From positions 62,001 through 126,000 of the forward strand of contig NZ_JAATOT010000004.1 of the NCBI RefSeq assembly GCF_011806455.1: a DNA stretch of 64,000 nt, read 5' to 3'. The position numbers were made by a program, and so were the translations under genes. Under the pieces are notes generated by a model. That model saw only the letters and a program-made list of their open reading frames with translations. It ran no database searches and was not told the origin of the DNA. Source of the DNA: Celeribacter sp. HF31. GTDB taxonomy: Bacteria; Pseudomonadota; Alphaproteobacteria; Rhodobacterales; Rhodobacteraceae. Of the stretch, positions 7,998-25,526 are shown piece after piece; position 1 is the stretch's first letter, and every line of letters starts with the position of its first letter.

Positions 7998-8047
7998 GCG
8001 GCAGAAGTATTTCGAGAATGTTTTTTCATTTTTCTGACAAATGCCTC

Positions 8048-8076: not shown

Positions 8077-8087
8077 CCGCCTCCAGT

Positions 8088-11069: not shown

Positions 11070-11800
11070 CTAAGGCTGCGTGTTCTTTGCATCCCACCAA
11101 CTTGTCTTGCACCTTTGCACCGTCGCCCAGCTGAGACGCATAGTTCTAGCGATCTTGTTTGTTGTCCATCCATCATCAGACAGCTCATACATGCGGGCGC
11201 GATCATATTTCTGGTTTGAATTTCGTGGCTTGATTGTGCGTCCGGTCGACTTGATCCACTTGGATATGGACTGGGGCGTCGGCCCATGCTCTTGGCTCAG
11301 GGCACGCAGAGATTTCCCGCCTTCCCATGCCTTCGCAATATTTTCTACAACGTCAAACCCAGCCGCTTTCAGACCGTGAATGGCATCGCGGCGTGTGATC
11401 GCAAGCCTTTTGGCGAACTGATCCAGGGACCCGACTTCCTGAAACAGCGCCACCAGTTCATCGGTCGCACAATGCTGATGTCGGCCCCAAAGCTGTAGAT
11501 AAATGCACGCTTCTGAACCTGCTCTCGGAGTTCGAGACGTCGCTTCATGGCACGACGTTCGGCCTCTCGACAACGCGCACGCCTTTCTTCATCGGTCAAC
11601 GATTTGCGATTCTGAAGCTGTTTCCGCTTCCGCGCAGGGATCCTAATCGGTCGTCGGGCAGCTAGCCTGTCGTAGGCTTCTTGGGCTAATCGAAGAGCTT
11701 CTTTTGCTTGCTGTAAGTTCTCTTCGGCTTGATGAAACATTCGGCTTTCTTCGTCTGTCGTCCCATGACGACTGGGCCGCGCATCAGTGTTCAAGCCCAT
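11070..11800 (-). pseudogene. Coiled-coil / helix-turn-helix protein split by a frameshift
   Basis: Two overlapping minus-strand frames each look coding in only one part. The frame from 11800 gives a coiled-coil, Gln/Glu/Arg-rich N-terminal half (AEENLQQAKEALRLAQEAYD, then KRKQLQNRKSL). From about 11500 the -1 frame takes over with two helix-turn-helix-like units: SLDQFAKRLAITRRDAIHGL, then SLRALSQEHGPTPQSISKWI and TTNKIARTMRLSWATVQRC. A single-base change near 11500 would join them into a protein of about 240 residues. The repeated helix-turn-helix units suggest DNA binding, as in resolvase or transposon regulators, but I do not recognise the family. Confidence 0.5.
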
Positions 11801-11894
11801 ATCTGGTTCCCTGCGTGTGATTCCTTGTTTGCGACATAGTCACAGTTTGCAGTGCTTTGGCCAACACGAGATCTCATTCTGTATGATGATCGCC

Positions 11895-12147
11895 ATGGCA
11901 AAAAAGAGATTCAAAGCCCCACAAAGTGGAAATCCTTGACCTAGCTCTGGCTGAGCGGAAGTTGGGCAAACAAGCAAAACAGTTTGATAGTCTGATGATC
12001 CTCAACCGCGATCGACATGAAGAGATAAAGTACCGCCTGAGGCAGCGAGGCGTATCCTTGGTTCAGATCGCGCGGGGTTTTCCAAGTCTGGCGCAGAGTT
12101 TGACCGTGGCGTGCTTGGTCCTCAATGCTTCGCTCAATCTCCGTTAA
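11895..12147 (+). pseudogene. Remnant of a small Ner/Nlp-like helix-turn-helix regulator
   Basis: ATG 11895 opens a 14-codon frame (MAKKRFKAP) that ends at once. A GTG at 11926 in another frame continues with RHEEIKYRLRQRGVSLVQIAR, which resembles the Ner/Nlp phage-repressor type of DNA-binding domain, and then loses similarity. A further frame (near 12130) reads LIPERYQRG, resembling the usual end of such proteins. Together this looks like a gene with several indels. The family call is tentative. Confidence 0.35.
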
Positions 12148-12300: not shown

Positions 12301-12813
12301 TTACAAATAAGAGGTCGGAATAGCGGTGGTGAATTTCAGCTCTTCCATGGAAATCATCGAATTGACCTGGCTGAATTCCAGTCTCTGGATCATCTGTTTG
12401 TAGACGGCATCATAGGAGGCCATGTCCGGCACCACCACCTTGAGAATGTAATCCACGGTCCCGGTGAGGCGATAGGCTTCGACCACTTCCGGGATCTCGT
12501 CGATCAACTCGCGAAAGGTGTTGAGCCAATCAATTTCATGGCGCGAAGTGCTCACGCCGATGAACACGGTCAGGGGCACATTGGCGCGGGTCTGATCCAC
12601 GAGGACCACGCGTTTCTTGATCACGCCGGCTTCTTCCATCCGCTTGATGCGGCGCCAGCAGGGGTTGGTGGACAGGCCGACGGCTTCGGAGATCGCCTGA
12701 ATCGGCGTGTCGCTGTCCTGTTGTAGAATCTCAAGAATGCGTCGGTCGGTCTCGTCGAAGGTCATGCTTTCGATCGGTTTCGATCCGGTTTTGCGGGGGC
12801 GAGGCTCTGTCAT
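12301..12813 (-). CDS. Lrp/AsnC-family regulator, DecR/CcdR-like (probable cysteine-responsive type)
   Basis: A 170-residue regulator with an N-terminal AsnC helix-turn-helix (DETDRRILEILQQ, then STNPCWRRIKRMEEAGVI) and a C-terminal RAM effector-binding domain ending MEELKFTTAIP. The pattern NPCWRRIKRMEE and the closing MEExKxTTxIP closely recall DecR (YbaO), the Lrp-type activator that answers to cysteine in enterobacteria. It is last in a minus-strand set with SDR and VOC genes, overlapping the VOC gene by ATGA. It faces a divergent operon containing a cysteine-desulfurase-like enzyme. I infer that it controls this locus; the effector is a guess from family resemblance. Confidence 0.85.
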   Translation of the reverse strand: MTEPRPRKTGSKPIESMTFDETDRRILEILQQDSDTPIQAISEAVGLSTNPCWRRIKRMEEAGVIKKRVVLVDQTRANVPLTVFIGVSTSRHEIDWLNTFRELIDEIPEVVEAYRLTGTVDYILKVVVPDMASYDAVYKQMIQRLEFSQVNSMISMEELKFTTAIPTSYL

Positions 12814-13682
12814 GTGGCAACAAACTCCAAAAGGACACCGGCTGAAAATTCGGGCCCCACGGCCAGACCGGTGGCGGTCTCAAACATATTTACATGCGCA
12901 TCTTTAAGGCAATGCCGGAGGGTTTCAAGGCTGCGTACTTTGAGGCGAAGGGCCGTGAAGGCGCCCTTGGTCGTCGCGGAAAGGTCAATGCCGGGATAGA
13001 GCGCGGCCATCCGGTCGGCTGTGGCGAGGATCAGCGGGGCGGAGTTGGGGCCGGTCTCGATTGTGGTCAGCCCATCCTCTGTGTGGACTGCGCCGTCGGC
13101 CCAAAGCCGGGCAAAGCGCGGGGCGTCCTCTTCGGGTGTGTCGGAGATCGCAAGCACCGCGTCCAATCCGCAGGCGGTGTTGGCATGTTCCAACAGCTCT
13201 GGAACCCAGACCGTTTCGCGGGTCTTGTGCTGGCACATGAAAACCATGCCCAGCGGAACCTCCTCCGGCGTAAAGCTGACGGTGGAAAAGGCGGCGGTGC
13301 CTTCGGACCCATCGGGCAGGGGGACCGGGCGCGAAAAGCTGCCAAGCCCCTGTGTGGCGATGCCCAAATCACCCAGAGCACCGGCGGCGGCTTCGGCATC
13401 GTCGATACGACAGGCGATGGCATGAAGCCCCTGACCCATGGTGGTCAACATCTCGCGGCGAGGGGCGTTCAGATCGGTCGGGGTGACGACGCCCAAAAGC
13501 TCGAAATAATCGTCGGGGAACATGATGGTGTAATTCGCCGTGCCCTTGGCGGCGGAATGGGTGCCGCGCGGCGAGAGGGTAAAGCCAAGCGCCTTATACT
13601 GCGCGGCGGCGTGGTCGAGATCGTCGACGAGGGCAAAACAATGGTCGATGCCATGGACAGGATGGGGGACAGGATGGGTCAT
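12810..13682 (-). CDS. VOC-superfamily (glyoxalase_3-like) protein
   Basis: 290 residues with paired beta-alpha-beta-beta-beta modules. The N-terminal one begins GIDHCFALVDDLDHAAAQYKALGF, a standard opening for glyoxalase/dioxygenase-fold proteins. The metal site in the second half is hard to assign, so both an enzyme (isomerase, lyase or dioxygenase) and a binding role are possible. It lies between the SDR gene (40 bases upstream) and the Lrp-type regulator (ATGA overlap), so it is presumably expressed with them and serves the same pathway. The substrate is unknown. Confidence 0.75.
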   Translation of the reverse strand: MTHPVPHPVHGIDHCFALVDDLDHAAAQYKALGFTLSPRGTHSAAKGTANYTIMFPDDYFELLGVVTPTDLNAPRREMLTTMGQGLHAIACRIDDAEAAAGALGDLGIATQGLGSFSRPVPLPDGSEGTAAFSTVSFTPEEVPLGMVFMCQHKTRETVWVPELLEHANTACGLDAVLAISDTPEEDAPRFARLWADGAVHTEDGLTTIETGPNSAPLILATADRMAALYPGIDLSATTKGAFTALRLKVRSLETLRHCLKDAHVNMFETATGLAVGPEFSAGVLLEFVAT

Positions 13683-13707
13683 GTGCGTGTCTCTTTATTG
13701 ATGCGTT

Positions 13708-13747
13708 ATGTGCGAACAGGGCTCAGGATGTGCGAACAGGGCTCAGG
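13708..13747. repeat. 20-bp perfect tandem duplication at the 3' end of the SDR gene
   Basis: ATGTGCGAACAGGGCTCAGG occurs twice head to tail (13708-13727 and 13728-13747). The SDR stop codon lies inside the junction; without the extra copy the protein would end one residue earlier. Confidence 0.9.
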
Positions 13748-14436
13748 ACAATTTCAGGCAGGCAAATGCCGGGCTGCATCTCCGCCACAAAGAGCGCGGT
13801 CTTCGCCATGTCTTCGGGCTGGATCATCGCGGCCATTTTCGCGGCATCGAAACCGGGGCGTTTTGCCAAGAGCGGGGTCGCCACCTCGGCGGGGCAAAGC
13901 GCGGTGGAGCGGATGCCGTTCTTGCCCTCCTCGTCGTTGAGGCTCAGCGACAGATCGGACAGCGCATGTTTCGAGGCGCCGTAAACCACGCCGCTGACCG
14001 GTGAATGAAACCGACCGGCCCAGCTCGAGGTGTGGATCATCACGCCGTCCTTTTGCGCCCGCATGATCGGCAGGCAGGCGGCAATCACATTGAGTGCGCC
14101 GGTGATGTTGACGTCGATCACCCGGTCCCAGCTTTCCCAATCCAGATCGGCCCAGCTTCGTTTCGGAATGTTGAGCCCCGCGTTGTTACACAGCACATGA
14201 AGCCCGCCGGACCACGCCACGATGGTCTCGGCGGCCTTGGCCATGCCCGCGCGGTCGGTGACGTCGCCGGGCAGGATCAAAGCGGCCTCGGGGTCGGGCA
14301 GGGTGGCCGCCACCGCCTCAAGGCTCTCGCGTCCGCGTGCCGTCAAAGCCACGCGATACCCGGCCTCGGCAAAGCCCCGCGCCATGGCGGCGCCAATGCC
14401 GGAGCCCGCCCCGGTGATCCATGCAATTTTTGTCAT
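13723..14436 (-). CDS. Short-chain dehydrogenase/reductase (SDR)
   Basis: A 237-residue classical SDR: cofactor loop TGAGSGIG near the N-terminus, NNAG, catalytic Ser in HTSSWAG and the YGASK active-site motif. The residues after the second beta strand (ARGRES) suggest NADP(H) preference. It would oxidise or reduce an alcohol/carbonyl made in this locus. It leads the minus-strand SDR-VOC-Lrp group and is separated by 197 bases from the divergent ABC transporter operon. Confidence 0.85.
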   Translation of the reverse strand: MTKIAWITGAGSGIGAAMARGFAEAGYRVALTARGRESLEAVAATLPDPEAALILPGDVTDRAGMAKAAETIVAWSGGLHVLCNNAGLNIPKRSWADLDWESWDRVIDVNITGALNVIAACLPIMRAQKDGVMIHTSSWAGRFHSPVSGVVYGASKHALSDLSLSLNDEEGKNGIRSTALCPAEVATPLLAKRPGFDAAKMAAMIQPEDMAKTALFVAEMQPGICLPEIVLSPVRTS

Positions 14437-14633
14437 ATGTTTTGTCCCAGTGTTTTCAACTTATGGGGAATGCTAGCACCAATATTTAATCATAGTGTAG
14501 AATTTTTTTCCAATCTTGTTCTAAAAGTTGGTTTTTAATGTTGACGGATGCATGTTGCTTCTCTCAGGTAGGGGAGCATAACGACCGAACAAGCCCGCAA
14601 AGGGTGATCAACCGACCGGGAGAACCAGAACAG
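14437..14633. promoter_or_regulatory. Divergent promoter/operator region of the sulfur-compound locus
   Basis: This AT-rich gap lies between the SDR operon (minus) and the ABC operon (plus). It contains runs of A/T around 14480-14535 and a weak dyad CCAA-N14-TTGG (14510-14531). Lrp-type proteins favour such AT-rich sites, so the local Lrp regulator is the likely binder, but no clear consensus box can be named. Confidence 0.45.
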
Positions 14634-16229
14634 ATGACTTTCACGATGAAACAGGCGGGGCTGGCGCTCGCCATGACCGGGGCCCTGAGCTCTGTGGCCT
14701 TGACAGCCCAGGCGCAAGACGAGGTCCAAAAGGGCGGCACCGCCGTCATCCATATGATTTCCGAACAGCGTATTCTCAATCCGGGTCTGCGCGCCTCGAC
14801 CGGGGTGTACAACATCACCGGCAAGATCATGGAGCCGCTGATCGACAAAAGCTACGAGGGCTACGAGCCGGTGCTGGCGACCGAATGGTCCGGCTCCGAC
14901 GATGGTCTGACGGTCACGCTCAAATTGCGCGAAGGGGTGAACTGGCACGATGGCGAACCCTTCACCTGTGACGATGTGGCGTTCTCGGCGATAGAGCTGT
15001 GGAAAAAACTCTTGAATTACTCCTCCGCGCTTCAGGCCAATCTTGAAAGCGTCGATTGCCCGGATCCGCATACGGCGGTGTTCAACTATTCGAAACCGAT
15101 GCCGATTGAGCTTTTCGTCGCTGCCATGCCCGATCTGGGGCATCCGGTTCCGAAACACCTGTTCGAAGGCACCGATATTCTCAAGAACGAGTATAACACC
15201 GCCCCCGTCGGCACCGGCCCGTTCAAATTCGTCGAATATCAGCGCGGGCAGTATGTTTTGGCGGAGAAGAACGAAGACTACTGGCGCGAGGGCTACCCTT
15301 ATCTCGACCGCATCGTCTGGCGTTTCATCAAGGACAAATCCGCCGCCGCCGCCGCCCTTGAGGCAGGCGAGGTGCATGAGTCTGGCTTTATCGGTGTCTC
15401 CATGGCCGATGTTGCGCGCTTCGGCGAAGACGATCGTTTTGACGTCGGCACCCAGGGCTATGAAAACAACGTCGCCCACTCGACCGTCGAATTCAATCAC
15501 CGCAACCCGATCCTCGCCGATCTGAAAGTGCGTCAGGCAATGTATCATGGTCTGGACATCGACTATGCGATCCAGACGATCATGCATGGCTACGCCAAAC
15601 CGGGCCGCGGTCCGGTGCCGAGCGCCGGTGGCATCAATTACACCGACGATGTGCCGACCTATGACTACGACCCGGAACTGGCCAAACAGATGCTCGATGA
15701 GGCTGGCTATCCGGTGCAGGACGATGGCTATCGGTTCCACCTCAAACACCGTCCGGCGCCCTGGGGCGAATACACCCAGCTTTGGGCCGAGTATTACGCG
15801 CAGGCGATGAAAGAGATCGGCATCGACGTCGAGATTCTCACCAACGATGCGCCGGGCTTCCTTAATGGTGTGTACCGTGACCATGATTTCGACACCGCGA
15901 ACGGCTGGCACCAGTTCCGCTCCGACCCGGCTGTGTCCACCATGGTCTGGCTGCGCTCCGGTCAGCCGGAAGGCACGCCCTGGACCAACCAGTTCGGCTG
16001 GAAGGACGAAGAGATGGACGCGATGATCGACGCCGCCGCCTCCGAGTTGGACGTCCAGAAACGTGCCGAGATGTATCACGAAATTCAAGCGCGTGAGATG
16101 GCCGAGCTGCCGGTGATCTTCGCGATCGAACATCCGTTCATCTCTGTCACCTCCAAAAAGCTCCACAACCACCACAACACGCCGCGGTGGAACTCGTCGA
16201 GCTGGTACGACCTCTGGCTCGAACAATGA
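14634..16229 (+). CDS. ABC transporter substrate-binding protein, peptide/nickel (SBP_bac_5) family
   Basis: 531 residues from ATG 14634, with a Sec signal peptide (KQAGLALAMTGALSS...AQA). The mature part shows family-5 features: MEPLIDKSYEG, LREGVNWHDGEPFT with CDDVAFS, VGTGPFKF and DPELAKQMLDEAGYP. Such periplasmic proteins bind peptides or other small organic molecules and hand them to a DppBC-type channel. An in-frame codon at 14538 would add an implausible leader, so I chose 14634. It is first in a long operon with permeases, ATPase and catabolic enzymes; the ligand is unknown but probably the pathway's starting compound. Confidence 0.9.
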   Translation: MTFTMKQAGLALAMTGALSSVALTAQAQDEVQKGGTAVIHMISEQRILNPGLRASTGVYNITGKIMEPLIDKSYEGYEPVLATEWSGSDDGLTVTLKLREGVNWHDGEPFTCDDVAFSAIELWKKLLNYSSALQANLESVDCPDPHTAVFNYSKPMPIELFVAAMPDLGHPVPKHLFEGTDILKNEYNTAPVGTGPFKFVEYQRGQYVLAEKNEDYWREGYPYLDRIVWRFIKDKSAAAAALEAGEVHESGFIGVSMADVARFGEDDRFDVGTQGYENNVAHSTVEFNHRNPILADLKVRQAMYHGLDIDYAIQTIMHGYAKPGRGPVPSAGGINYTDDVPTYDYDPELAKQMLDEAGYPVQDDGYRFHLKHRPAPWGEYTQLWAEYYAQAMKEIGIDVEILTNDAPGFLNGVYRDHDFDTANGWHQFRSDPAVSTMVWLRSGQPEGTPWTNQFGWKDEEMDAMIDAAASELDVQKRAEMYHEIQAREMAELPVIFAIEHPFISVTSKKLHNHHNTPRWNSSSWYDLWLEQ

Positions 16230-16241
16230 TCTGACACTTTG

Positions 16242-16273
16242 GCGGGCGCGCCTCCCTTCGCGCCCGCTCTTTT
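16242..16273 (+). terminator. Hairpin after the binding-protein gene (attenuator / RNA-stability element)
   Basis: A nine-base-pair GC stem (GCGGGCGCG with CGCGCCCGC) around an eight-base loop, followed by TCTTTT. It resembles a terminator but lies inside an operon, 13 bases after the binding-protein stop, so partial termination or 3'-end protection is likely. Confidence 0.7.
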
Positions 16274-16308
16274 GACATTTGCCCATGATCCCGAAGGATC
16301 CAAAGACA

Positions 16309-17298
16309 ATGACACTGCACATGCCCCCGATCCTGACCTATGCGCTGAGGCGTCTGATTCAGGCCATTCCCGTGGTCATCCTGATCATGATCGGCACATT
16401 TCTCTTGCTCAAACTGGCGCCCGGCGACACGGTCGATGCGCTTGTGGGCGACATGGGGGGCGCGGATGCCGCCTTCATCGCGCGGCTTAGGGCCGAATAC
16501 GGTCTCGACCAACCGATTTGGGTGCAGCTCTGGCGCTATATGGTCAAGCTGGCGAGCTTCGATTTCGGCTGGTCCTTTGTCTATGAGCAACCCGTCGCGA
16601 CTGTTTTGATGGACCGCCTCGGCACCACACTGATGCTGATGGCCGCCTCTTTGAGCATCGCCTTTACGGCCGGGATCGTTTTGGGCGCCATTGCCGCGCG
16701 GCGTGCCTATTCCGCGACCGACAACCTGATCTCCATTCTGGGTCTCGTGTTCTACGCCACTCCCTCGTTTTTCCTCTCCCTGATGCTGATGCTGGTTTTC
16801 TCCGTCAAACTCGGCTGGTTGCCGGTGGGCGGGATCAAGACCATCGCCGCCTTTTACACCGGCTGGGATCACGTTTGGGATGTGGTGCGCCACCTGATCA
16901 TGCCGACGACCGCGCTCTCGCTGATCTATCTGGCGTTTTACCTGCGCCTGATGCGGGCCTCCGTGATGGAAGTCGCTGATCTCGATTATGTCCGCACCGC
17001 CCGCGCCAAGGGCGCCCGCGAAGGCCGCCTTATGACCCACCACATCATGCGCAACGCGCTCCTGCCGGTGGTCACGCTTTTGGGGCTTCAGTTCTCCACC
17101 GTTCTGGGCGGCTCCATCGTGGTTGAAACCATCTTCACCCTGCCGGGACTGGGCCAACTGGCCTACCAGTCCGTCGTTCAGCGCGACATGAACACCTTGA
17201 TGGGCATCATCTTTTTGTGCGCCATCATCGTGGTCGTCGTCAATTTCCTCACCGACCTGCTCTACGCACGTCTCGACAGCCGGATCGAACTCGCATGA
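16309..17298 (+). CDS. ABC transporter permease, DppB type
   Basis: A 329-residue inner-membrane protein with six hydrophobic segments. It has the DppB/OppB N-terminal pattern (RRLIQAIPVVILIMIGTF, then KLAPGDTVDAL) and the cytoplasmic loop that contacts the ATPase (DYVRTARAKGARE...HHIMRNALLPV). ATG 16309 is preceded by an AGGAT sequence. The gene overlaps the second permease by ATGA. Confidence 0.9.
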   Translation: MTLHMPPILTYALRRLIQAIPVVILIMIGTFLLLKLAPGDTVDALVGDMGGADAAFIARLRAEYGLDQPIWVQLWRYMVKLASFDFGWSFVYEQPVATVLMDRLGTTLMLMAASLSIAFTAGIVLGAIAARRAYSATDNLISILGLVFYATPSFFLSLMLMLVFSVKLGWLPVGGIKTIAAFYTGWDHVWDVVRHLIMPTTALSLIYLAFYLRLMRASVMEVADLDYVRTARAKGAREGRLMTHHIMRNALLPVVTLLGLQFSTVLGGSIVVETIFTLPGLGQLAYQSVVQRDMNTLMGIIFLCAIIVVVVNFLTDLLYARLDSRIELA

Positions 17299-18170
17299 CC
17301 TTCGCCGATACAGAAATCGCCCCGCCCGAGCCGCCGCGTTACGTCATGTTCTGGCGCCGCTACAAACGCAACCGCGCCGCTTTGCTTGGCCTTGTGCTCT
17401 TTGTCCTCGTCGTGCTGATGGCGCTGACGGCGGGCCTCATTGATCCCGGCGACCCGCTGCGCCGTGCGGGGGAACCGCTCACCCCGCCGTTCATGAACTG
17501 GGACACGCCTTTGGGCACGGATCAGTTGGGCCGCGATGTGCTCTCCGGTGTCTTCTACGGCGCGCGTATTTCGCTTTTGATCGGCGTCGTCGCCACGCTC
17601 GTGGCCATCGTTATCGGCGTCGTGATCGGCGCACTTGCTGGCTACTTTGGCGGCTGGGTCGATGACGTGCTGATGCGCATCACTGAAGCGTTTCAGACCA
17701 TCCCGAACTTTGTCCTGTTGTTGACGCTCGTCGCCATCATGGGGTCAAAAATTGAGTGGATCACGCTGGCCATCGGCATCGTCAGTTGGACCGCGCCGGC
17801 CCGCATGGTGCGTGCCGAATTCATGTCGCTGCGGCACCGCGAATTCGTCGACGCCGCCCGCAATCTCGGCGTGTCGAACACCTCGATCATCTTCCGCGAA
17901 ATCCTGCCCAACGCTTTGCCGCCCATCGTGGTCTACGCCTCCGTCATCATGGCGCTGTCGATCCTGATGGAAAGCGCGCTGGCCTTTCTTTCGCTGGGCG
18001 ACCCGAACTACGCCAGCTGGGGCAATATGATCGGTCAAGGCCGCGCCGTGCTGCGCTCCGCCCCTTACTGCGCCGTGATCCCCGGCATTGCGATCATCCT
18101 GACTGTGCTGTCCTTTTCGCTTCTGGGCGAGGGGCTGAACGATGCGCTCAATCCGAGGCAGAAGAAATGA
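17295..18170 (+). CDS. ABC transporter permease, DppC type
   Basis: A 291-residue permease partner of the preceding gene. The N-terminal block RRYKRNRAALLGLVLFVLVV and the luminal signature HPLGTDQLGRDVLS-like sequence (here PLGTDQLGRDVLSGV) are typical of DppC/OppC. The ATPase-contact loop reads EFVDAARNLGVSNTSIIFRE. Both ends overlap neighbours by ATGA, indicating coupled translation of the transporter subunits. Confidence 0.9.
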   Translation: MTFADTEIAPPEPPRYVMFWRRYKRNRAALLGLVLFVLVVLMALTAGLIDPGDPLRRAGEPLTPPFMNWDTPLGTDQLGRDVLSGVFYGARISLLIGVVATLVAIVIGVVIGALAGYFGGWVDDVLMRITEAFQTIPNFVLLLTLVAIMGSKIEWITLAIGIVSWTAPARMVRAEFMSLRHREFVDAARNLGVSNTSIIFREILPNALPPIVVYASVIMALSILMESALAFLSLGDPNYASWGNMIGQGRAVLRSAPYCAVIPGIAIILTVLSFSLLGEGLNDALNPRQKK

Positions 18171-19813
18171 CCAAGACACCTCCTCCCGTCCTCGATCTGT
18201 GCAAGCTGGAGATTTCCCTGCCCAAGGGCGCGGACCGTGCTTTCGCGCTCGAAGGCCTCGACCTGACCATCAACGCGGGCGAGATTGTCTGTCTCGTCGG
18301 CGAAAGCGGCTCCGGCAAATCGCTCTGCGCGGGCGCCATCATGGGCCTTCTGCCGGAACCGCATGTGCGGGTGACCGGCGGTGCGATCCGCTTCATGGGC
18401 GAAGAGCTTCGCGGCAAATCGGATGCCGAGATGCGCAAGCTGCGCGGCGCCGATATTTCGATGATCTTCCAGGAGCCGATGACCGCGCTCAACCCGCAGA
18501 AAACCGTGGGGTGGCAAATCGACGAAGTGCTGCGTCTCCACACCAAAATGACCAAGGCGGAGCGCAAGGCCCGCGCGCTTGAGATGTTGGAGCGCGTCCA
18601 CATCCCGGAGCCCGCCTCGGCCTATAACGCCTACCCGCATCAAATCTCCGGTGGCCAGCGTCAGCGGGTGATGATCGCCATGTCTTTGGTGCTTTCGCCG
18701 AAGCTGATCATCGCGGATGAACCGACCACGGCGCTTGATGTGACGACCCAGTTGCAAATCCTGAAACTCATTCGCGAGCTCCAAGAGGAAGAGGGCGCGG
18801 GCGTGCTCTTCATCACCCACGACTTTGGCGTGGTGGCGGAAATTGCCGACAAGGTCGCCGTGCTCTGCCGGGGTGAGCTGGTCGAAAGCGGCACGACGGA
18901 TGCGGTGCTCAACCACCCGCAGCATCCTTACACCCGCGCGCTGATCGGCGCCGTACCCGCACTCACCCCCCCGCCGGTCAAAGCCGCCTCTGACGCGCCT
19001 GTCGTGCTCAAAGGCACGGGGTTGAAAAAGACCTTCGCCGCGCGCGGCGGATTGCTGTCGGGCAAACGCAAAGCGGTGACGGCGGTCAAGGATCTCACCT
19101 TTGAGCTGCGTCAGGGCGAAACCCTTGGCGTCGTCGGTGAAAGCGGCTCCGGCAAGACCACCGTGTCGCGCATCGTCACACGTCTTTTGGAATGTGACCA
19201 AGGCTCTGTCGAGTTGGACGGCACCGATCTTTTGGCCGCCACGCCGAAAGAATTGCGCGCCCTGCGTCAGCACATTCAGATGGTGTTCCAGGACCCGATG
19301 GCCTCGCTCAACCCGCGCAAACGCGTGGTCGACCTCATCGCGCAGGGTCCCATCGTACACGGTGCCGATCCGAAAAAGGCCCGCGAAGACGCGAAGAAGC
19401 TCCTCGAACTTGTTGAGCTGTCCCCCGCCGCGGCCAACCGGTTTCCGCATGAATTCTCCGGCGGTCAGCGTCAGCGCATCGGCATTGCCCGCGCCCTTGC
19501 GATGGAGCCGAAGGTGATCGTTGCCGACGAACCGGTCTCCGCGCTGGATGTCTCGGTGCAGGCGCAGGTGCTCAAACTCTTGGCGGAGCTGCGCGATCGG
19601 CTCAACCTGTCCTTGCTGTTCGTCACCCACGACCTGCGCGTCGCGGCCCAGCTCTGCGACCGGATCATCGTCATGCAAAAGGGCGAGATCGTCGAACACG
19701 GGCCCACCGCGGAGGTCTTCGCCAACCCGCAGCACCCCTACACACAGAATTTGTTGTCTTCCATTCCGGGCCGCGATTGGACCCCCCCGTCGCTGCACGC
19801 GAATGTTGCCTGA
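18167..19813 (+). CDS. ABC transporter ATP-binding protein with two fused ATPase domains (DppD-DppF type)
   Basis: 548 residues from ATG 18167 (ATGA overlap). Two complete ATPase cassettes are fused. The first has Walker A GESGSGKS, signature ISGGQRQR and Walker B LIIADEP. The second, from about residue 290, has [16 protein letters not shown] and VIVADEP. Each ends with the oligopeptide-transporter extension ([10 protein letters not shown] and [10 protein letters not shown]). It energises uptake through the two permeases. Confidence 0.92.
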
Positions 19814-19822
19814 GGTTTTACC

Positions 19823-21448
19823 ATGTCACTGGAATTTAAAGATATTCGAAGCGCTCTGATCGGCGAGGGGGCGGCCATCTCCGGCCCCTTCGGACCCCGC
19901 GCCCTGATCTATGCCGATTACGTCGCCTCCGGCCGGGCACTTGGGTTCATCGAAGACGCGATCCGCACCCATGTCCTGCCCTATTATGGCAACACCCATA
20001 CGGAGACCTCTTTCGTCGGGCGCCGCACCACGCAGCTCCGGGAAATGGCGCGCGAAGCGGTGCGTTCGGCGGTCGATGCGGATGAAAATCACGCGGTGAT
20101 CTTCACCGGCTCTGGCGCGACCGGCGCGGTCGACAAGCTGGTGCGGGCCTTTGCCATGAAAGGCCTCTCGCAAGGCGTGGTCTTTGTCGGTCCCTATGAG
20201 CATCACTCCAACGATCTGCCCTGGCGGGAAAGCGGGGCAGAGCTGGTGCGCATTCCCTTGAATGCGGCAGGCACGATCTGTCTGGAAACGCTGGAACAGG
20301 CGCTCGAAACTCATGCCGACGCGCCTCTCAAAATCGGAGCCTTCTCGGCCGCCTCTAACGTCACCGGCGTGCGCACCGACCTGCGCGCGATTGCCAAGCT
20401 GCTCCACGAACATGACGCCTTTTGTGTCGCCGATTTCGCCGCCGCCGCGCCCTATATGCCGGTGGAACTCGCGGAAACATCGCAAGGCGCAGGCGACCGG
20501 ATCGACGCCGCCGTGATCTCGCCGCATAAATTCCCCGGCGGCCCCGGGGCCTCCGGTGTGCTGATCGCCGAACGGAGCCTCTTTGACACCACGCGCCCGA
20601 CGCTCACGGGCGGCGGCACGGTGAGCTACGTGACGTCTGAGGGCCACAGCTACATCACCGATCCCGAGCACCGCGAAGAGGGTGGCACCCCCGCCATCGT
20701 CGACAACATCCGCGCCGGCATGGTGATGCAGCTCAAACGCGACATGGACGAGGCTCGTGTCGAGGCCCGCGAAACCGTGTTGACCCGTCGGATGGAAGAG
20801 GCGCTGCGCGCCATTCCGGGGATGGAGCTTTTGGGGCCGTCGAATGTGCCGCGTCTGGGGATTTTCTCGTTCAACCTGCGGGTCAAAGGCAAGCTGTTGC
20901 ACCACAACTATGTCGTGGCTTTGCTCAATGATCTGTTCGGGATTCAGGCCCGTGGCGGCTGTTCCTGTGCCGGGCCGTACGGACACTCCTTACTCGACAT
21001 CGACCTGACCACAAGCGCGCGCCACGAGGCCGCCGTGCAGCACGGCCATTCGATCTTCCGTCCCGGCTGGGCGCGGTTCGGGGTGAACTGGTTCTTCGAG
21101 GAGGAAGACGTGGACAAGATCGCCAGTGCCATCCGCTTTGTCTCCGAACACGGTCTCGACATGCTGGCCTATTACCAACTCGATGCGGTCGAGGGCATAT
21201 GGCGTGCAACGCCCAGTTTTGAGGACACTTGTCCCACCGCACTTTCTGCGCTTTGGGAAAGCCAATCGTCGCAAATGGACACAGTGCCTGATTTCTCCAG
21301 CTGCCTCGCGCAGGCTGAGGCCTTGGCCGAGACCGCCAAAACGCTCGACTGCTGTGCCGGGCCGGATCTCTCCGCCGAAGAAGAGGCGCTGCGTTGGTTC
21401 TGGCTGCCACAGGAAGTCACCGGCCTGATTCCGGAAGGAGCGGCATGA
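19823..21448 (+). CDS. Class V PLP-dependent aminotransferase, cysteine-desulfurase / selenocysteine-lyase-like
   Basis: 541 residues, longer than the usual 400-residue enzymes because of a C-terminal extension after residue 440. The PLP lysine is in SPHKFPGG, and the substrate loop carries RGGCSCAGPYGH in the position of the catalytic cysteine region. The N-terminus (ADYVASGRALGFIEDAI...NTHTETSFVGRRTT) matches the selenocysteine-lyase-like subgroup. The family removes sulfur from cysteine or performs related beta-elimination; exact activity is inferred. It follows the transporter at nine bases and overlaps the oxidoreductase gene, supporting a catabolic operon around a sulfur amino acid. Confidence 0.8.
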   Translation: MSLEFKDIRSALIGEGAAISGPFGPRALIYADYVASGRALGFIEDAIRTHVLPYYGNTHTETSFVGRRTTQLREMAREAVRSAVDADENHAVIFTGSGATGAVDKLVRAFAMKGLSQGVVFVGPYEHHSNDLPWRESGAELVRIPLNAAGTICLETLEQALETHADAPLKIGAFSAASNVTGVRTDLRAIAKLLHEHDAFCVADFAAAAPYMPVELAETSQGAGDRIDAAVISPHKFPGGPGASGVLIAERSLFDTTRPTLTGGGTVSYVTSEGHSYITDPEHREEGGTPAIVDNIRAGMVMQLKRDMDEARVEARETVLTRRMEEALRAIPGMELLGPSNVPRLGIFSFNLRVKGKLLHHNYVVALLNDLFGIQARGGCSCAGPYGHSLLDIDLTTSARHEAAVQHGHSIFRPGWARFGVNWFFEEEDVDKIASAIRFVSEHGLDMLAYYQLDAVEGIWRATPSFEDTCPTALSALWESQSSQMDTVPDFSSCLAQAEALAETAKTLDCCAGPDLSAEEEALRWFWLPQEVTGLIPEGAA

Positions 21449-22746
21449 TGTCTGTCGACTTTCCGAAATCCCTCTGGGCCGCCACCGCGCCCGACCGCCC
21501 GCTTTCCGCACCGCTCGAAGGCGTCGAGGAAACCGATGTCGCCGTGATCGGCGCGGGGTTCACCGGCCTCTCCGCCGCCATTGAGGCCCGCAAACGCGGC
21601 CATGCGGTCACCGTTGTCGAAGGCAAAGCCGCAGGATGGGGCGCGTCGGGGCGCAACAACGGCCAGGTGATCCCGATCCTGACCTCTGCCGAACCCGATG
21701 TCTGGGTGTCGCGCTATGGCGAGACCGGCAAACGCATGGTCCGGCTGATCGGCAACTCGGGCGATGTGCTGTTCGATCTGGTGCGCGAATTCGACATGCA
21801 GGCGGAGGCCGAACAGACCGGCTGGTTCCAACCGGCCCATAGCCCCGGTCGTGTGAAACTGTCGCAAAAACGCGTCGAAGCCTGGGCGCGCCATGGCTTT
21901 CCGGCGGAGCTGAAAGACGCCAAAGAATGTGCGGACATCTTAGGCACGGATTTCTGGTACGGCGGCATGTTCAACCCGACGGGCGGCCATATCAATCCGC
22001 TCGCCTTGGCACGTGAAATGGCGCGGGTGGCGGAACATCTGGGCGCGGTGATCCATGAGGACAGTCCGGTGATCTCTTATGAGCGCGTCGGCTCTGAATG
22101 GGTGATCAAAACGGCGCAGGGCACGCTCAAGGCTCGGGCACTGATCCTTGCCACCAACGCTTACACGGGCGAATTGGCTCCGCGTCTGGCGCCTCGGATT
22201 GCGCGCTCGATTGTGCCGGTGCTGAGCTGGCAAATGGCGACAGCACCCTTGGGCGACAACCTGCGTCAGAAAATCCTGCCGGGGCGTCAGGCGGTCTCAG
22301 ACACGCGCGGGGATTTGCGGTTTTTCCGATATGACGCGCGCAATCGGCTGATCACCGGCGGTGCCGTGATGGGGTCTTTTGACGTTGCCAACCGCGTGCG
22401 CAAGAAAGCCGCGAAGAGCCTCGCCGAGGCCTTCCCAGAACTGGGCGTTCCGGAAATGACCCATGTCTGGTCGGGCTATATCGGCATGAACTGGGACCGC
22501 TTCCCGCGTGTTCACAAACTCGGCCCCGATGGCTGGGCCTGGATCGGGTGTAACGGGCGCGGTGTGGCGCTTGGCACCTCTTTGGGCCGCGAGTTGGCCC
22601 GCGCCGCCACCGGCCAACCGGAAGATGAACTGGCCCTGCCGGTGACCGAGCCGCATCCCTTCCCGGCGCATGGCTTTGTGCGCCGCTTTGCCCCCACCTA
22701 TCTGGCCTGGCTCAAACGTCAGGACCACAAGGAAGTGAACCTATGA
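21445..22746 (+). CDS. DadA-like FAD-dependent amine/D-amino acid oxidoreductase
   Basis: 433 residues, ATG 21445 overlapping the previous stop. The N-terminal FAD-binding motif is GAGFTGLSAAIEARKRG, followed by the Ser-Gly-Arg-Asn-Asn sequence (WGASGRNNGQVIP) typical of the DAO family. The C-terminal FAD contact lies around WIGCNGRGVALG. It should oxidise a C-N bond of an amino acid or a cyclic imino acid, passing electrons to oxygen or the quinone pool. In this operon, a thiazolidine- or D-amino-acid-type substrate is conceivable, but this is inference. Confidence 0.82.
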   Translation: MMSVDFPKSLWAATAPDRPLSAPLEGVEETDVAVIGAGFTGLSAAIEARKRGHAVTVVEGKAAGWGASGRNNGQVIPILTSAEPDVWVSRYGETGKRMVRLIGNSGDVLFDLVREFDMQAEAEQTGWFQPAHSPGRVKLSQKRVEAWARHGFPAELKDAKECADILGTDFWYGGMFNPTGGHINPLALAREMARVAEHLGAVIHEDSPVISYERVGSEWVIKTAQGTLKARALILATNAYTGELAPRLAPRIARSIVPVLSWQMATAPLGDNLRQKILPGRQAVSDTRGDLRFFRYDARNRLITGGAVMGSFDVANRVRKKAAKSLAEAFPELGVPEMTHVWSGYIGMNWDRFPRVHKLGPDGWAWIGCNGRGVALGTSLGRELARAATGQPEDELALPVTEPHPFPAHGFVRRFAPTYLAWLKRQDHKEVNL

Positions 22747-23237
22747 CCGAAGAAAAAAAGATGGACCTGAACGACGTTCCGATCCTGCTCCGCCGCCGCA
22801 TCGAGGCGATGATCCTCAAACATGTGCTCGACGTGATCACCGAGCGCACGGGTCGCGAAGAGGCCGAGGCCGTGATCGGGGCGGCCTGTTCCAAATCCGC
22901 AATCGAACAAGGTCAGATGCTGGCCGAAGTGCTGGGCCATGCGCCAGACCTGACGGATTTTGCCGCGATCCAGCCGAACTGGACCCGCGAGGATGCACTC
23001 AGAATCGAGACCATTGAGATGTCCGAGGAAAAGATGGATTTCAACGTGGTGAAATGCCGATATGCGGAGATGTATCAGGAAATGGGGCTGGGCGATATCG
23101 GCCACCTGTTGTCCTGCAATCGTGATGGCGATTTCTGCATCGGCTATAATCCGGAGATCGAAATGACCCGCACGCAGACGATCATGAAAGGCGCGAGCCA
23201 CTGCGATTTCCGTTACAGAATGAAGAAGGAGGCCTGA
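22743..23237 (+). CDS. L-2-amino-thiazoline-4-carboxylic acid hydrolase family protein
   Basis: 164 residues, overlapping the previous gene by ATGA. The C-terminal half reads CRYAEMYQEMGLGDIGHLLSC, then DFCIGYNPEIEM and KGASHCDFRY. This is the conserved pattern of the ATC-hydrolase family (PF14196), with Cys and Asp positions retained. In Pseudomonas the founding enzyme opens the thiazoline ring of L-2-amino-thiazoline-4-carboxylate to N-carbamoyl-cysteine on the way to cysteine. The neighbours (an M20 amidohydrolase, a cysteine-desulfurase-like enzyme, a cysteine-type Lrp regulator) fit a related ring-opening role. Many family members are uncharacterised, so the true substrate may differ. 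Confidence 0.78.
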   Translation: MTEEKKMDLNDVPILLRRRIEAMILKHVLDVITERTGREEAEAVIGAACSKSAIEQGQMLAEVLGHAPDLTDFAAIQPNWTREDALRIETIEMSEEKMDFNVVKCRYAEMYQEMGLGDIGHLLSCNRDGDFCIGYNPEIEMTRTQTIMKGASHCDFRYRMKKEA

Positions 23238-23238
23238 G

Positions 23239-24408
23239 ATGGCTGTCGAGAATTGGGTCGCCAAACAGGTTGCGGATCTGACGGAATTCCGCCGCGATCT
23301 GCATATGAACCCCGAGCTTTTGTATGACGTGGAACGCACGGCGCAGAAGGTGGCCGAGGCACTTCGGGCCGCCGGGGTCGATGAGGTCCATGAAGGCATC
23401 GGCAAGACCGGCGTGGTCGGTGTGATCCGGGGTCAAAGCAATCTGTCCGGGCGCTCCATCGGTCTGCGCGCCGATATGGATGCGCTCCCTATTTTGGAGG
23501 AAACCGGCAAGCCCTATGCCTCGCAGGTGCCGGGCAAGATGCACGCCTGCGGCCATGACGGACACACGACGATGCTCTTGGGCGCGGCGCGGCATCTGGC
23601 GGAGAGCCGGGCCTTTGATGGGACCGTGGTTGTGATCTTCCAACCCGCCGAAGAGGGCGGCGCGGGCGCACGCGCGATGATCGAGGACGGGCTCTTCACT
23701 CGCTGGCCCTGTGATGAGGTCTACGGCATGCACAACCGTCCGAACTTGCCGGTCGGGCAATTCACCATCAATTCCGGGCCGATCATGGGCTCGGTCGATG
23801 AGGTGAAAATCACCATCACCGGGCGCGGTGGCCATGCGGCACGTCCCGAACAGACCATCGACCCTCTCCCCATCGCGGGCGCGCTGTTGCAGGCGGTTCA
23901 GACGCTGACCTCGCGCAACATGGACCCGATCGACAGTGCGGTGATCTCGCTCTGCACCATTCAGGCCGGGAATGCGTTCAACGTCATTCCGCAGGATGTG
24001 ACCCTGACCGGCACAGTGCGGACGCTGCGCGAAGAGGTGCGCGATATGATCGAAGAGCGGCTGACGGCCATGGTCGGCAATATCGCCGCCGCCTATGGTG
24101 CGGTGGGCACGACCGAATACACGCGCCACTATCCGGTGACGGTGAACCACGCGCGTGAAACCGAACTGGCCGCCAAGGCCGCGCAAGAGGTGGCGGGTGT
24201 CGAGAACGTGTTCCTCGACATGCCGCAAACCCTGGGCGGAGAGGATTTTTCCTTCATGCTCAACGAAGTGCCCGGTGCGATGATCAATGTCGGCAACGGC
24301 CCGTCAGCGGCGCTGCACCACCCGCTCTATGATTTCAACGACGACGTGATCGCCTGGGGCAGTTCCTATTGGACCACTTTGGTGCGGCAACGTCTTCCGC
24401 TTGGTTAG
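23239..24408 (+). CDS. M20-family amidohydrolase (hippurate / N-acyl or N-carbamoyl amino acid hydrolase type)
   Basis: 389 residues. The dinuclear zinc site residues are visible: RADMDALPI, MHACGHDGHTTMLLG, PAEEGGAGA and the C-terminal GGEDFSF with LHHPLYDF. This is the IAA-amino acid/hippurate hydrolase branch, which cleaves an amide to free an amino acid. It starts one base after the ATC-hydrolase-like gene and ends the operon. In the characterised Pseudomonas route, ring opening is followed by an N-carbamoyl-cysteine amidohydrolase; this enzyme occupies the equivalent place in the operon, an argument from context only. Confidence 0.88.
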   Translation: MAVENWVAKQVADLTEFRRDLHMNPELLYDVERTAQKVAEALRAAGVDEVHEGIGKTGVVGVIRGQSNLSGRSIGLRADMDALPILEETGKPYASQVPGKMHACGHDGHTTMLLGAARHLAESRAFDGTVVVIFQPAEEGGAGARAMIEDGLFTRWPCDEVYGMHNRPNLPVGQFTINSGPIMGSVDEVKITITGRGGHAARPEQTIDPLPIAGALLQAVQTLTSRNMDPIDSAVISLCTIQAGNAFNVIPQDVTLTGTVRTLREEVRDMIEERLTAMVGNIAAAYGAVGTTEYTRHYPVTVNHARETELAAKAAQEVAGVENVFLDMPQTLGGEDFSFMLNEVPGAMINVGNGPSAALHHPLYDFNDDVIAWGSSYWTTLVRQRLPLG

Positions 24409-24496: not shown

Positions 24497-25396
24497 CTAA
24501 AGAGTCATCCCTCCGCCCAGGCGTCGCGCGAGCGCGAGCAACATCTGTGCCGCTTCGGACTGTGGCATCTGATCGCGCAAGAGAATGCCAAGGGCGATCG
24601 GGGGCGGCAAATCCGGAACCGCGATCGCGACGAGGCCAAGCGCGTGCAATTGACTGTGGTAAAGCGGCGCGGGACTGAGTGCGACGACATCTGTCGAGAC
24701 GTTCAGGATCATTTTCAGGTAAGGTGAACTGCATTCGATGAGCGGATGTGTGAACTGAATGCCACGACTGTTGAGCCACTCGAAAACGATATGATCCGCG
24801 CTGCCGGGCATCATATTCGCTACCCAACGCTTTTGTGCCAGCGCCTCCCAGCTCATCTTGACGCAGGTGTCTGTCGTCAGACGGGTGATCGGGATCATGC
24901 GCATGTCGCCAAGCTGTTCAAAGCTGAGATCAGGGGGGATTTCCTCGGGTTTGGCCAGAACCATCGCGAAATCGAGATCGCCTGTGCGCAGTGCGGGCAC
25001 CACGGTGGAGAGGACGCCCGTTTGGATCTGAAGTCTTCCGTCAGGAAAATCTGACTGAAACGCGGTCACAAGACGTGCGAGTTTGGCGTTGGCAACGGCG
25101 GGCGTGACAGCGATGCGCACATGGGCCGTATCCTGACCGGAAATCCGCCGCACCTCTTCTTTCGCCCGCCTAATCGCGGCAAGTGCAAGGCTGGCATGGT
25201 CCAGCAAGACTGTGCCGGCGCGCGTGAACTTTGTGCCCTCCGTTTGACGGTCGAGAAGAGGTGCGCCGGTGTCCCGCTCAAGCTCTTTCAGGGCGCGCGT
25301 GACGGCGCTTTGGCTCAGACCCAGAGCCCGCGCTGCACCCCGGATCGAGCCGGTTTCGGCCAGCGCGGTGATGGCCTCCAACTGGTTGATGCGCAA
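24497..25396 (-). CDS. LysR-family transcriptional regulator
   Basis: 299 residues if started at the TTG at 25396, which follows GGAGG by five bases and gives the normal LysR opening RINQLEAITALAETGSIRGAARALGLSQSAVTRALKELE. An in-frame codon at 25510 would add 38 residues that overlap the divergent promoter and look non-coding. The C-terminal domain has the periplasmic-binding fold expected for an inducer. It is divergent from the serine hydrolase gene (130-base gap) and probably controls it. Confidence 0.87.
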   Translation of the reverse strand: MRINQLEAITALAETGSIRGAARALGLSQSAVTRALKELERDTGAPLLDRQTEGTKFTRAGTVLLDHASLALAAIRRAKEEVRRISGQDTAHVRIAVTPAVANAKLARLVTAFQSDFPDGRLQIQTGVLSTVVPALRTGDLDFAMVLAKPEEIPPDLSFEQLGDMRMIPITRLTTDTCVKMSWEALAQKRWVANMMPGSADHIVFEWLNSRGIQFTHPLIECSSPYLKMILNVSTDVVALSPAPLYHSQLHALGLVAIAVPDLPPPIALGILLRDQMPQSEAAQMLLALARRLGGGMTL

Positions 25397-25526
25397 ATCT
25401 ACCTCCGTGACGGCCCTGGTACGGTTCACCTGACAACGAAACGAGGTCACCCTACCATATTTTGCGTCTATTCGAAGATAAAAACCTTTCTCAGAGTGTT
25501 TCAAACACAACAGGAGAGGTGACAGG

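What the first reader, a model, noticed from the sequence alone, without database searches (positions are those of the whole stretch)
12301..24408. Divergent locus that looks like an undescribed catabolic pathway for a cysteine-derived heterocycle or N-acyl compound
Visible: Dpp-type importer, cysteine-desulfurase-like class V enzyme, DadA-like oxidase, ATC-hydrolase homologue and M20 amidohydrolase in one overlapping run, facing SDR, VOC and an Lrp regulator with DecR-like motifs. Known: ATC hydrolase plus an amidohydrolase make cysteine from a thiazoline in Pseudomonas, and DecR answers to cysteine. Inferred: import, ring opening, amide cleavage, oxidation and desulfuration of one sulfur compound. 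I know of no characterised pathway with this full set.
Basis: partly seen in the sequence, partly recalled or inferred. Interest (0 to 1): 0.8.

Follow-up and report, generated by a model that had tools for sequence, protein, structure and literature searches.

The report
Operon for breaking down cysteine thiazolidines
This bacterial gene set most likely imports a sulfur ring made from cysteine and an aldehyde (such as formaldehyde), oxidises and opens the ring, and frees cysteine for use as food; the substrate itself has not been tested.

Summary
From 14634 to 24408 runs a tight operon: ABC importer, class V PLP enzyme, FAD oxidase, PF14196 (ATC-hydrolase) protein, M20 amidohydrolase; it faces SDR, VOC and a DecR-like Lrp regulator. 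Comparison supports a cysteine-derived sulfur ring but reorders the chemistry. The oxidase belongs with secondary-amine oxidases (nearest model L-pipecolate oxidase, below cut-off), so it probably acts first, turning a thiazolidine into a thiazoline; PF14196 opens it to N-acyl-cysteine, M20 removes the acyl group, the PLP enzyme desulfurates cysteine. In 80 relatives and 16 plasmid regions the oxidase never occurs with the carbamoylase that partners PF14196 in Pseudomonas. In some operons a Cds1-like cysteine desulfhydrase replaces the PLP enzyme, and Cds1 also follows one carbamoylase-type pair. In 244 genomes of the order, all 7 close copies of the oxidase abut PF14196. No activity or substrate is proven; thiazolidine-4-carboxylate (thioproline) is my first guess. 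Ten literature searches found no description of this gene set. New variant of the known ATC pathway.

The parts
12301..12813 (-). Lrp/AsnC-family regulator, DecR-like
   Evidence: PF01037 72.6 bits; 39% identity, 135 bits to E. coli DecR against 31%, 84.7 bits to E. coli Lrp
12810..13682 (-). VOC protein (Glyoxalase_3), role unknown; linked to the Dpp-type importer
   Evidence: PF13468 116.9 bits; present in 40 of 41 loci with the importer and 0 of 39 without
13723..14436 (-). SDR oxidoreductase, accessory, role unknown
   Evidence: PF00106 161.8 bits; in 31 of 80 loci
14498..14512 (.). candidate Lrp box in the divergent promoter region (13 of 15 positions of the recalled E. coli Lrp consensus)
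   Evidence: consensus matches enriched across 35 divergent regions, none of 200 shuffles as high
14634..16229 (+). solute-binding protein, SBP_bac_5 (Dpp/Opp/Nik superfamily); the ORF opens at 14538, the start at 14634 is my choice from the signal-like N-terminus
   Evidence: PF00496 278.4 bits
16279..17298 (+). ABC importer permease B (first base is that of the longest ORF; the true start is unsure)
   Evidence: PF00528/PF19300
17295..18170 (+). ABC importer permease C
   Evidence: PF00528/PF12911; ATGA overlap
18167..19813 (+). ABC importer ATPase, two ATPase domains in one chain
   Evidence: PF00005, 2 stretches; ATGA overlap
19823..21448 (+). class V PLP enzyme, SufS-like, with C-terminal extension; proposed cysteine desulfurase/desulfhydrase
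   Evidence: PF00266 173.7 bits; aligned to SufS structures; Lys236, Cys380 and Cys382 kept in at least 97% of 31 sequences
21445..22746 (+). FAD oxidase (DAO family), proposed thiazolidine (secondary cyclic amine) oxidase
   Evidence: PF01266 208.8 bits; NF050086 246.7 bits, cut-off 600; fold of sarcosine oxidase, L-proline dehydrogenase and, at rank 44, the SoxB-thioproline complex 9u3b
22743..23237 (+). PF14196 ATC-hydrolase homologue, proposed thiazoline ring-opening hydrolase
   Evidence: 124.7 bits, cut-off 28.1; model pLDDT 94, Bet3/V4R-like fold
23239..24408 (+). M20 amidohydrolase (TIGR01891), proposed N-acyl-cysteine deacylase
   Evidence: TIGR01891 352.1 bits, cut-off 153.75; PF01546 163.3 bits; H102, C104, H106 kept in at least 97% of 44 sequences

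Best explanation
It is an accessory catabolic operon for cysteine-derived thiazolidines, most likely thiazolidine-4-carboxylate (thioproline, the spontaneous adduct of formaldehyde and cysteine) or 2-substituted relatives made from other aldehydes. Steps, all inferred: (1) the ABC importer brings the compound in; (2) the FAD oxidase oxidises the C2-N bond of the ring, giving a thiazoline-4-carboxylate; (3) the PF14196 protein adds water and opens the thiazoline to N-acyl-cysteine (N-formyl-cysteine from thioproline), the analogue of the ATC to carbamoyl-cysteine step known in Pseudomonas; (4) the M20 enzyme cuts the amide to cysteine and the acid (formate); (5) the class V PLP enzyme removes sulfur from cysteine; some other operons carry a Cds1-like L-cysteine desulfhydrase instead, in three cases with RidA. 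A DecR-like Lrp regulator, perhaps sensing cysteine or the substrate, controls the divergent promoters. Shown by computation: gene families, operon overlaps, recurrence of oxidase, PF14196 and M20 in six gene orders, partner swaps. Not shown: any enzyme activity, the substrate, or regulation.
For: Partner swap: in 80 loci the oxidase is in 52, M20 (TIGR01891 type) in 45 (44 of them with the oxidase), carbamoylase in 6, oxidase and carbamoylase together in 0; the carbamoylase starts directly after PF14196, the slot that M20 holds. The rule held in 16 plasmid regions fetched later: 5 with oxidase, all 5 with M20 and none with carbamoylase; 8 with carbamoylase, none with oxidase; 3 with neither. 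Oxidase type: NF050086 is the best model for each of 8 operon oxidases scanned (238-294 bits, all below 600); best folds are sarcosine oxidase and L-proline dehydrogenase, with SoxB-thioproline at rank 44. Cysteine as product: class V enzyme in 33 loci and Cds1-like in 5, never both; four Cds1-like proteins scanned score 533-570 bits on the L-cysteine desulfhydrase model, cut-off 600; RidA near Cds1 in L038, L043 and L133; a Cds1 72% identical follows PF14196 plus carbamoylase on a Shinella plasmid. Reassembly: Azospirillum L133 holds Lrp, RidA, Cds1, second PF14196, branched-chain-type importer, PF14196, M20, oxidase in another order and lies outside the main oxidase group on the PF14196 tree. 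Profile: 7 of 244 genomes have the oxidase, each with PF14196 within 50 bases. Chemistry precedent: a paper states that thioproline is converted to N-formylcysteine by bacteria and mitochondria (PMC9814826, passages); SoxB takes thioproline as a minor substrate (PMC12582975, passages).
Against: No activity is tested and no solved relative of PF14196 was found by sequence. 8 of 52 oxidase loci lack the M20 gene and 14 of 52 lack both PLP enzymes in the DNA held; three of the 8 (L054, L059, L064) are contigs under 10 kb, the other five are not. 28 of 80 PF14196 loci have no oxidase, and 21 of these have neither M20 nor carbamoylase; the same is true of plasmid regions L121 and L131, and L126 has an M20 only 7 kb away. 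In L059 and L065 oxidase and PF14196 lie near an aldehyde dehydrogenase; the L065 one passes the L-piperideine-6-carboxylate dehydrogenase model (NF050084, 797.3 bits, cut-off 730), which would fit pipecolate; the L059 oxidase is far below the pipecolate oxidase cut-off (237.9 of 600). VOC and SDR have no role in the scheme. Cds1-like scores stay under the model's cut-off. A residue difference (Cys132 against Ile) that seemed to separate oxidase from carbamoylase types failed on held-out plasmid sequences. The M20 and importer families are generic. The tree is a quick one and the Azospirillum L133 row is on a long branch.
Confidence: 0.6

Rival explanations
1. The operon degrades ATC itself (the cyanide-cystine product) as in Pseudomonas, with the M20 enzyme taking the place of the carbamoylase and the oxidase handling the unwanted D-isomer or a side product.
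For: PF14196 is 49-50% identical to the three Pseudomonas proteins (L060-L062) that stand next to a carbamoylase.
Against: The M20 is not of the carbamoylase class (33 bits against a cut-off of 204); oxidase and carbamoylase never occur together in 80 loci or 16 plasmid regions; no racemase match among the window operon proteins scanned, while a racemase is annotated beside PF14196 in S. meliloti L134.
Confidence: 0.12
2. A scavenging island for several cysteine derivatives: the enzymes act on different compounds (N-acyl-cysteines, ATC, amino acids) and do not form one linear pathway.
For: The M20 and importer families are generic; PLP enzymes, VOC, SDR and importers are exchangeable.
Against: Oxidase, PF14196 and M20 stay together through changes of importer, PLP enzyme and gene order; a close copy of the oxidase (E up to 1e-110) without PF14196 was seen in 0 of 244 genomes.
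Confidence: 0.13
3. The substrate ring has no sulfur (a pipecolate-like or other cyclic imino acid) and the PF14196 protein opens a cyclic imine.
For: Best oxidase model is L-pipecolate oxidase; L-piperideine-6-carboxylate dehydrogenase close by in L065, with a relative in L059.
Against: Eight operon oxidases score 238-294 bits against a cut-off of 600; class V or Cds1-like genes in 38 of 52 oxidase loci; the imine from pipecolate opens without an enzyme and gives no amide for M20 (recalled knowledge).
Confidence: 0.1
4. The set builds or modifies a thiazoline natural product rather than degrading one.
For: The ATC-hydrolase name occurs once in the text of a paper on tolyporphin gene clusters (PMC8401325, search listing only, passage not read).
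Against: Importer, desulfhydrase, RidA and amidohydrolase are degradative; no synthase was found among the operon proteins scanned.
Confidence: 0.03

Closest known systems
ATC to L-cysteine pathway of Pseudomonas (ATC racemase, ATC hydrolase, carbamoyl-cysteine amidohydrolase)
   Same: PF14196 ring-opening protein followed directly by an M20-fold amide-cleaving enzyme; cysteine as presumed product
   Different: An FAD secondary-amine oxidase is added; the amide-cleaving enzyme is TIGR01891 instead of TIGR01879; no racemase seen; Dpp/Opp-superfamily importer; Lrp where LysR genes are annotated near PF14196 in carbamoylase-type plasmid regions L119, L123, L124, L128 and L130
Conversion of thioproline to N-formylcysteine (mitochondria, E. 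coli proline dehydrogenase)
   Same: Same proposed chemistry: oxidation of thiazolidine-4-carboxylate, then N-formyl-cysteine
   Different: There, to my knowledge, a side reaction of proline enzymes; here a dedicated operon with its own importer, hydrolase, deacylase and regulator
L-pipecolate oxidase AmaA
   Same: Best NCBIfam model for the oxidase
   Different: Score 246.7 against a cut-off of 600; no lysine catabolism gene among the window operon proteins scanned
SufS/CsdA cysteine desulfurases
   Same: PLP lysine and loop cysteine kept
   Different: 541 residues with a C-terminal extension, CSC loop, below every NCBIfam desulfurase cut-off listed, no Suf or Csd partner in the operon
L-cysteine desulfhydrase Cds1 and RidA
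   Same: Found in sister operons where the class V enzyme is missing
   Different: Not in the window operon; the Cds1-like relatives score 533-570 against a cut-off of 600

Membership tests
PF14196 ATC_hydrolase | Profile score above curated cut-off | tested here: met
   124.7 bits, cut-off 28.1, whole profile
Pseudomonas-type ATC pathway | Carbamoylase-class (TIGR01879) amidohydrolase beside PF14196 | tested here: not met
   M20 scores 33 bits, cut-off 204; TIGR01891 352.1 bits, cut-off 153.75
Pseudomonas-type ATC pathway | ATC racemase gene | tested here: not met
   No Asp/Glu racemase match among the operon proteins scanned; elsewhere in the genome not searched
Pseudomonas-type ATC pathway | Hydrolysis of L-ATC to carbamoyl-cysteine | not testable with these tools
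   Needs enzyme assay
L-pipecolate oxidase AmaA (NF050086) | Score above curated cut-off | tested here: not met
   246.7 of 600
SufS cysteine desulfurase (TIGR01979) | Score above curated cut-off | tested here: not met
   164.6 of 475.1
Cysteine desulfurase fold and chemistry | PLP lysine and catalytic loop cysteine | tested here: met
   Alignment to 8d8s; K236, C380, C382 in at least 97% of 31 sequences; activity not tested
M20 amidohydrolase (TIGR01891) | Score above curated cut-off | tested here: met
   352.1 of 153.75
DecR (cysteine-responsive Lrp regulator) | Closer to DecR than to Lrp | tested here: inconclusive
   39%, 135 bits to DecR; 31%, 84.7 bits to Lrp; only two yardsticks, no tree, no ligand test
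Dipeptide importer DppA | Score above equivalog cut-off | tested here: not met
   114.3 of 1005; none of the 10 NCBIfam models matched by the binding protein reached its cut-off; superfamily PF00496 met

The most novel reading that the evidence does not exclude
This is the first gene-defined, dedicated pathway for thioproline and related aldehyde-cysteine thiazolidines: importer, thiazolidine oxidase, thiazoline hydrolase (a Bet3/V4R-like ligand-binding fold turned enzyme), N-formyl-cysteine deacylase and cysteine desulfhydrase. It would let marine and soil bacteria eat the adducts that formaldehyde and other aldehydes form with cysteine, and return sulfur, nitrogen and formate.
Probability: 0.4. 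Interest if true: 0.75.

Novelty: new variant of a known kind. Interest (0 to 1): 0.6.

Why it matters
Thiazolidines form spontaneously from cysteine and aldehydes, yet in the papers met here their breakdown is a side reaction of proline or sarcosine enzymes (passages). A dedicated operon would give a genetic handle on this part of the organic sulfur cycle and on formaldehyde-cysteine chemistry, assign a function to a branch of PF14196 now annotated wholesale as ATC hydrolase, and name a new secondary-amine oxidase. The comparison also yields a testable rule: an oxidase beside PF14196 predicts a thiazolidine, a carbamoylase predicts ATC.

Tried and rejected
Residue rule: Cys132 in 30 of 30 oxidase-type and Ile in 3 of 3 carbamoylase-type PF14196 sequences of alignment A1. 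On plasmid sequences not used before, 3 of 4 carbamoylase types (L119, L123, L128) had Cys, though 4 of 4 oxidase types (L120, L122, L125, L127) did too. Dropped.

Pipecolate pathway: L059 and L065 carry lysine-type genes near oxidase and PF14196, but a VIT-like membrane protein (my reading of its sequence, no scan) lies between, and the L059 oxidase scores 237.9 of 600. Kept as a rival, not adopted.

Promoter motif by expectation maximisation: widths 16 and 18 had higher likelihoods, but I read the sites as SDR coding sequence at mis-called gene edges and threw them out; width 14 gave an A/T-rich palindrome (log-likelihood 61.9; six shuffles 31.3-42.7, with half as many restarts for the shuffles). 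The consensus test is better controlled, but promoters are A/T-rich, so the enrichment is suggestive only.

First ORF calling by longest frame failed on GC-rich DNA and was replaced; four loci (L025, L051, L072, L076) had no PF14196 gene called there, so the counts come from tblastn, which has fixed identity and coverage thresholds of my choosing.

No solved relative of PF14196 by sequence. Literature: no paper describing this gene set in ten searches of an open-licence library; two early papers on the Pseudomonas ATC conversion are not held.
Full report
OBSERVATION. The window lies in an unnamed 3.6-Mb genome. A genome of the same genus, G583, has its PF14196 match at the same contig coordinates as Celeribacter halophilus L010, so the genus is probably Celeribacter (inference); five of the seven Celeribacter loci have a PF14196 protein 90-98% identical to the window's, the two C. 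baekdonensis loci 77%. The forward run overlaps by ATGA at four junctions, so it is very likely one transcript. There is one PF14196 match in the genome.

WHAT THE PARTS ARE. The importer belongs to the Dpp/Opp/Nik superfamily; no NCBIfam binding-protein or permease model shown reaches its cut-off, so the substrate cannot be read from its name. The PLP enzyme aligns to SufS structures over about residues 26-400, keeps the PLP lysine and the loop cysteine (as CSC) in at least 97% of 31 sequences, and has an extra C-terminal part. The oxidase is nearest to L-pipecolate oxidase but far under its cut-off. Its AlphaFold model (pLDDT 89.7) is most like sarcosine oxidase beta subunits and L-proline dehydrogenase (rank 6); SoxB complexed with L-thioproline (9u3b) is at rank 44; glycine, D-arginine and N-methyltryptophan oxidases are also among the top 50. 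The nearest folds are thus mainly oxidases of secondary amines and small amino acids, and DadA-like is not the best label. The M20 enzyme is TIGR01891, not TIGR01879. The PF14196 model (pLDDT 94) matches Bet3/TRAPP subunits, phenol-sensor domains and H-NOX domains (TM about 0.5), a ligand-binding fold; Cys105, Cys125, Arg127, Asp128, Cys154 and Asp155 are invariant in 48 sequences.

NEIGHBOURHOODS. One scan gave 97 relatives, of which the tool kept the best 80. By tblastn with fixed thresholds: oxidase 52, M20 45, Dpp-type binding protein 41, VOC 40, class V enzyme 33, SDR 31, Lrp 22 (often cut by the 10-kb flank), second PF14196 protein 6, branched-chain-type importer of the oxidase operons 6, carbamoylase 6, Cds1-like 5, RidA 2, racemase 1. 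Oxidase and M20 occur together in 44 of 80 (M20 alone 1, oxidase alone 8, neither 27). Oxidase and carbamoylase never do (0 of 80). The carbamoylase (3 Pseudomonas, 3 Actinobacteria) begins directly after PF14196, where M20 stands in the oxidase operons. Fisher values are, but the loci are related, so the values overstate.

HELD-OUT CHECK ON PLASMIDS. 16 plasmid regions, chosen by me from the hits, were searched with the same queries and nearly the same thresholds. Five have the oxidase (L120, L122, L125, L127, L133; L122 and L127 are both A. brasilense and near copies): all five have M20, none has the carbamoylase. Eight have the carbamoylase (L119, L123, L124, L128, L129, L130, L132, L134): none has the oxidase. 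Three have neither: L121 (its FAD protein is of another family), L126 (an M20 7 kb away) and L131. S. meliloti L134 also has an annotated Asp/Glu racemase directly before PF14196. The carbamoylase type thus looks like the ATC pathway of the literature: racemase, hydrolase, amidohydrolase (PMC10821248, passages; that review gives both N- and S-carbamoyl-cysteine as intermediates).

OXIDASE TYPE ELSEWHERE. Agrobacterium plasmid L120 and Sagittula L125 have the window's order, L120 with a Cds1-like enzyme after M20 in place of the class V enzyme, both without SDR at threshold. Azospirillum L122 has M20, oxidase, second PF14196, branched-chain-type importer, PF14196. Azospirillum L133 has Lrp (48% identical to the window's), RidA, Cds1-like, second PF14196, importer, PF14196, M20, oxidase (four families confirmed). 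Oxidase, PF14196 and M20 also stand in other orders in L027/L032/L033, L029 and L048, making six orders with the window's type, two kinds of importer and two kinds of PLP enzyme. On the PF14196 tree of 74 rows (89 before near-copies were dropped; quick method, SH-aLRT only) the oxidase label needs 7 changes, at least 5 forced by well-supported branches, against 23.1 in shuffles; the two Azospirillum rows fall outside the main oxidase group, L133 on a long branch whose place is unsure; the 8 carbamoylase rows need one change, with low support, 54.

GENOME PROFILE. In 244 genomes of the order, 9 have PF14196 at E up to 1e-30 and 7 have the oxidase at E up to 1e-110; all 7 are among the 9, and by coordinates the two matches lie within 50 bases in each (the search scored at most 7 oxidase candidates a genome). 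The set is rare and patchy; one other genome of the genus, G528, lacks both. In the phylum sample 30 of 398 genomes have any PF14196 match.

CYSTEINE AS THE PRODUCT. Class V enzyme (33 loci) and Cds1-like enzyme (5 loci) never occur together, although with these numbers that alone is not significant (Fisher 0.07). Seven Cds1-like genes were seen in oxidase operons: five here plus L120 and L133. The four Cds1-like proteins scanned (L046, L120, L128, L133) score 545.1, 561.7, 570.4 and 533.2 on the L-cysteine desulfhydrase Cds1 model, cut-off 600, with the next model at 132 to 153. RidA, which removes 2-aminoacrylate (PMC5636819 and PMC12172467, abstract starts in the search listing), stands near Cds1 in L038, L043 and L133. 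The Shinella Cds1, downstream of a carbamoylase pair, is 72% identical to that of Paracoccus L046. So at least one known-type and several new-type operons feed the same kind of enzyme. 14 of 52 oxidase loci show neither PLP enzyme.

REGULATION. The regulator is closer to DecR than to Lrp; that DecR answers to cysteine is recalled. In 35 non-redundant divergent regions of 43, the best match to the recalled Lrp consensus averages 11.57 of 15 against 10.91 (s.d. 0.14) in 200 shuffles, none as high; 7 regions reach 13 against a mean of 0.95, maximum 4. The window has a 13-of-15 site at 14498-14512.

MECHANISM. Oxidation of the C2-N bond of a thiazolidine gives a thiazoline, the substrate class of an ATC hydrolase without its amino group; opening gives an N-acyl-cysteine in place of the carbamoyl-cysteine, hence an amidohydrolase in place of a carbamoylase. 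This would explain why oxidase and M20 come together while the carbamoylase stands only without the oxidase. Precedent: thioproline to N-formylcysteine in bacteria and mitochondria, as stated in PMC9814826 with references to Mackenzie and Harris 1957 and Deutch 1992 (passages; originals not seen); thioproline as a minor, inhibitory substrate of SoxB (PMC12582975, passages).

WHAT DOES NOT FIT. VOC goes with the Dpp-type importer (40 of 41 loci with it, 0 of 39 without), even in Humitalea L050, which has no oxidase or M20; it may act on a larger precursor. The second PF14196 protein is in all 6 loci with the branched-chain-type importer of the oxidase operons and in none of the 41 Dpp-type loci; the carbamoylase-type loci L061 and L062, also with a branched-chain-type importer, and Martelella L121 show none. 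Many PF14196 genes stand without any of these partners. See also the Against line.

NOVELTY. Ten searches of an open-licence library found no description of this gene set; most subscription papers are missing from it. I class it as a new variant of the known ATC pathway. It is not categorically new because each enzyme belongs to a known family and the core hydrolysis has a described counterpart.

Noticed in passing
window 9216-10919 (+): HerA-like ATPase (PF01935 48.4 bits; PADLOC HerA 96.4 bits) in a low-GC stretch (8001-12000, 52.5% against 59-63% in the other 4-kb blocks) directly left of the operon; one small neighbouring ORF gave no match.
   Followed up: partly
window 11070-11573 (-): Helix-turn-helix protein with a weak, sub-cut-off match to TnsD, between the HerA-like gene and the operon; may mark a mobile element edge.
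   Followed up: partly
window 24497-25510 (-) and 25527-26762 (+): LysR regulator and a PF00144 serine hydrolase next to the operon; no relative over threshold in any of 80 loci.
   Followed up: yes
L027, L029, L032, L033, L048, L063, L122, L127 and L133: A second, divergent PF14196 protein (36.5 bits for L048; different cysteine pattern) stands just before the branched-chain-type importer of the oxidase operons, in 6 of 6 such loci of the 80 and in none of the 41 Dpp-type loci; function unknown.
   Followed up: partly
L048:2355-3077 and L121:3403-4143: Asp/Glu racemase family gene in branched-chain-type clusters with Lrp and PF14196; may mean that both stereoisomers of the ring are used.
   Followed up: partly
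L066-L075 (Neoroseomonas and relatives): PF14196 genes about 50% identical to the window's with no oxidase, M20 or carbamoylase over threshold near them, in neighbourhoods rich in one unscanned gene cluster (c11).
   Followed up: no
L050: Humitalea rosea has PF14196, VOC and the Dpp-type importer without oxidase, M20 or PLP enzyme over threshold; a simpler version that could show what VOC and importer do.
   Followed up: no
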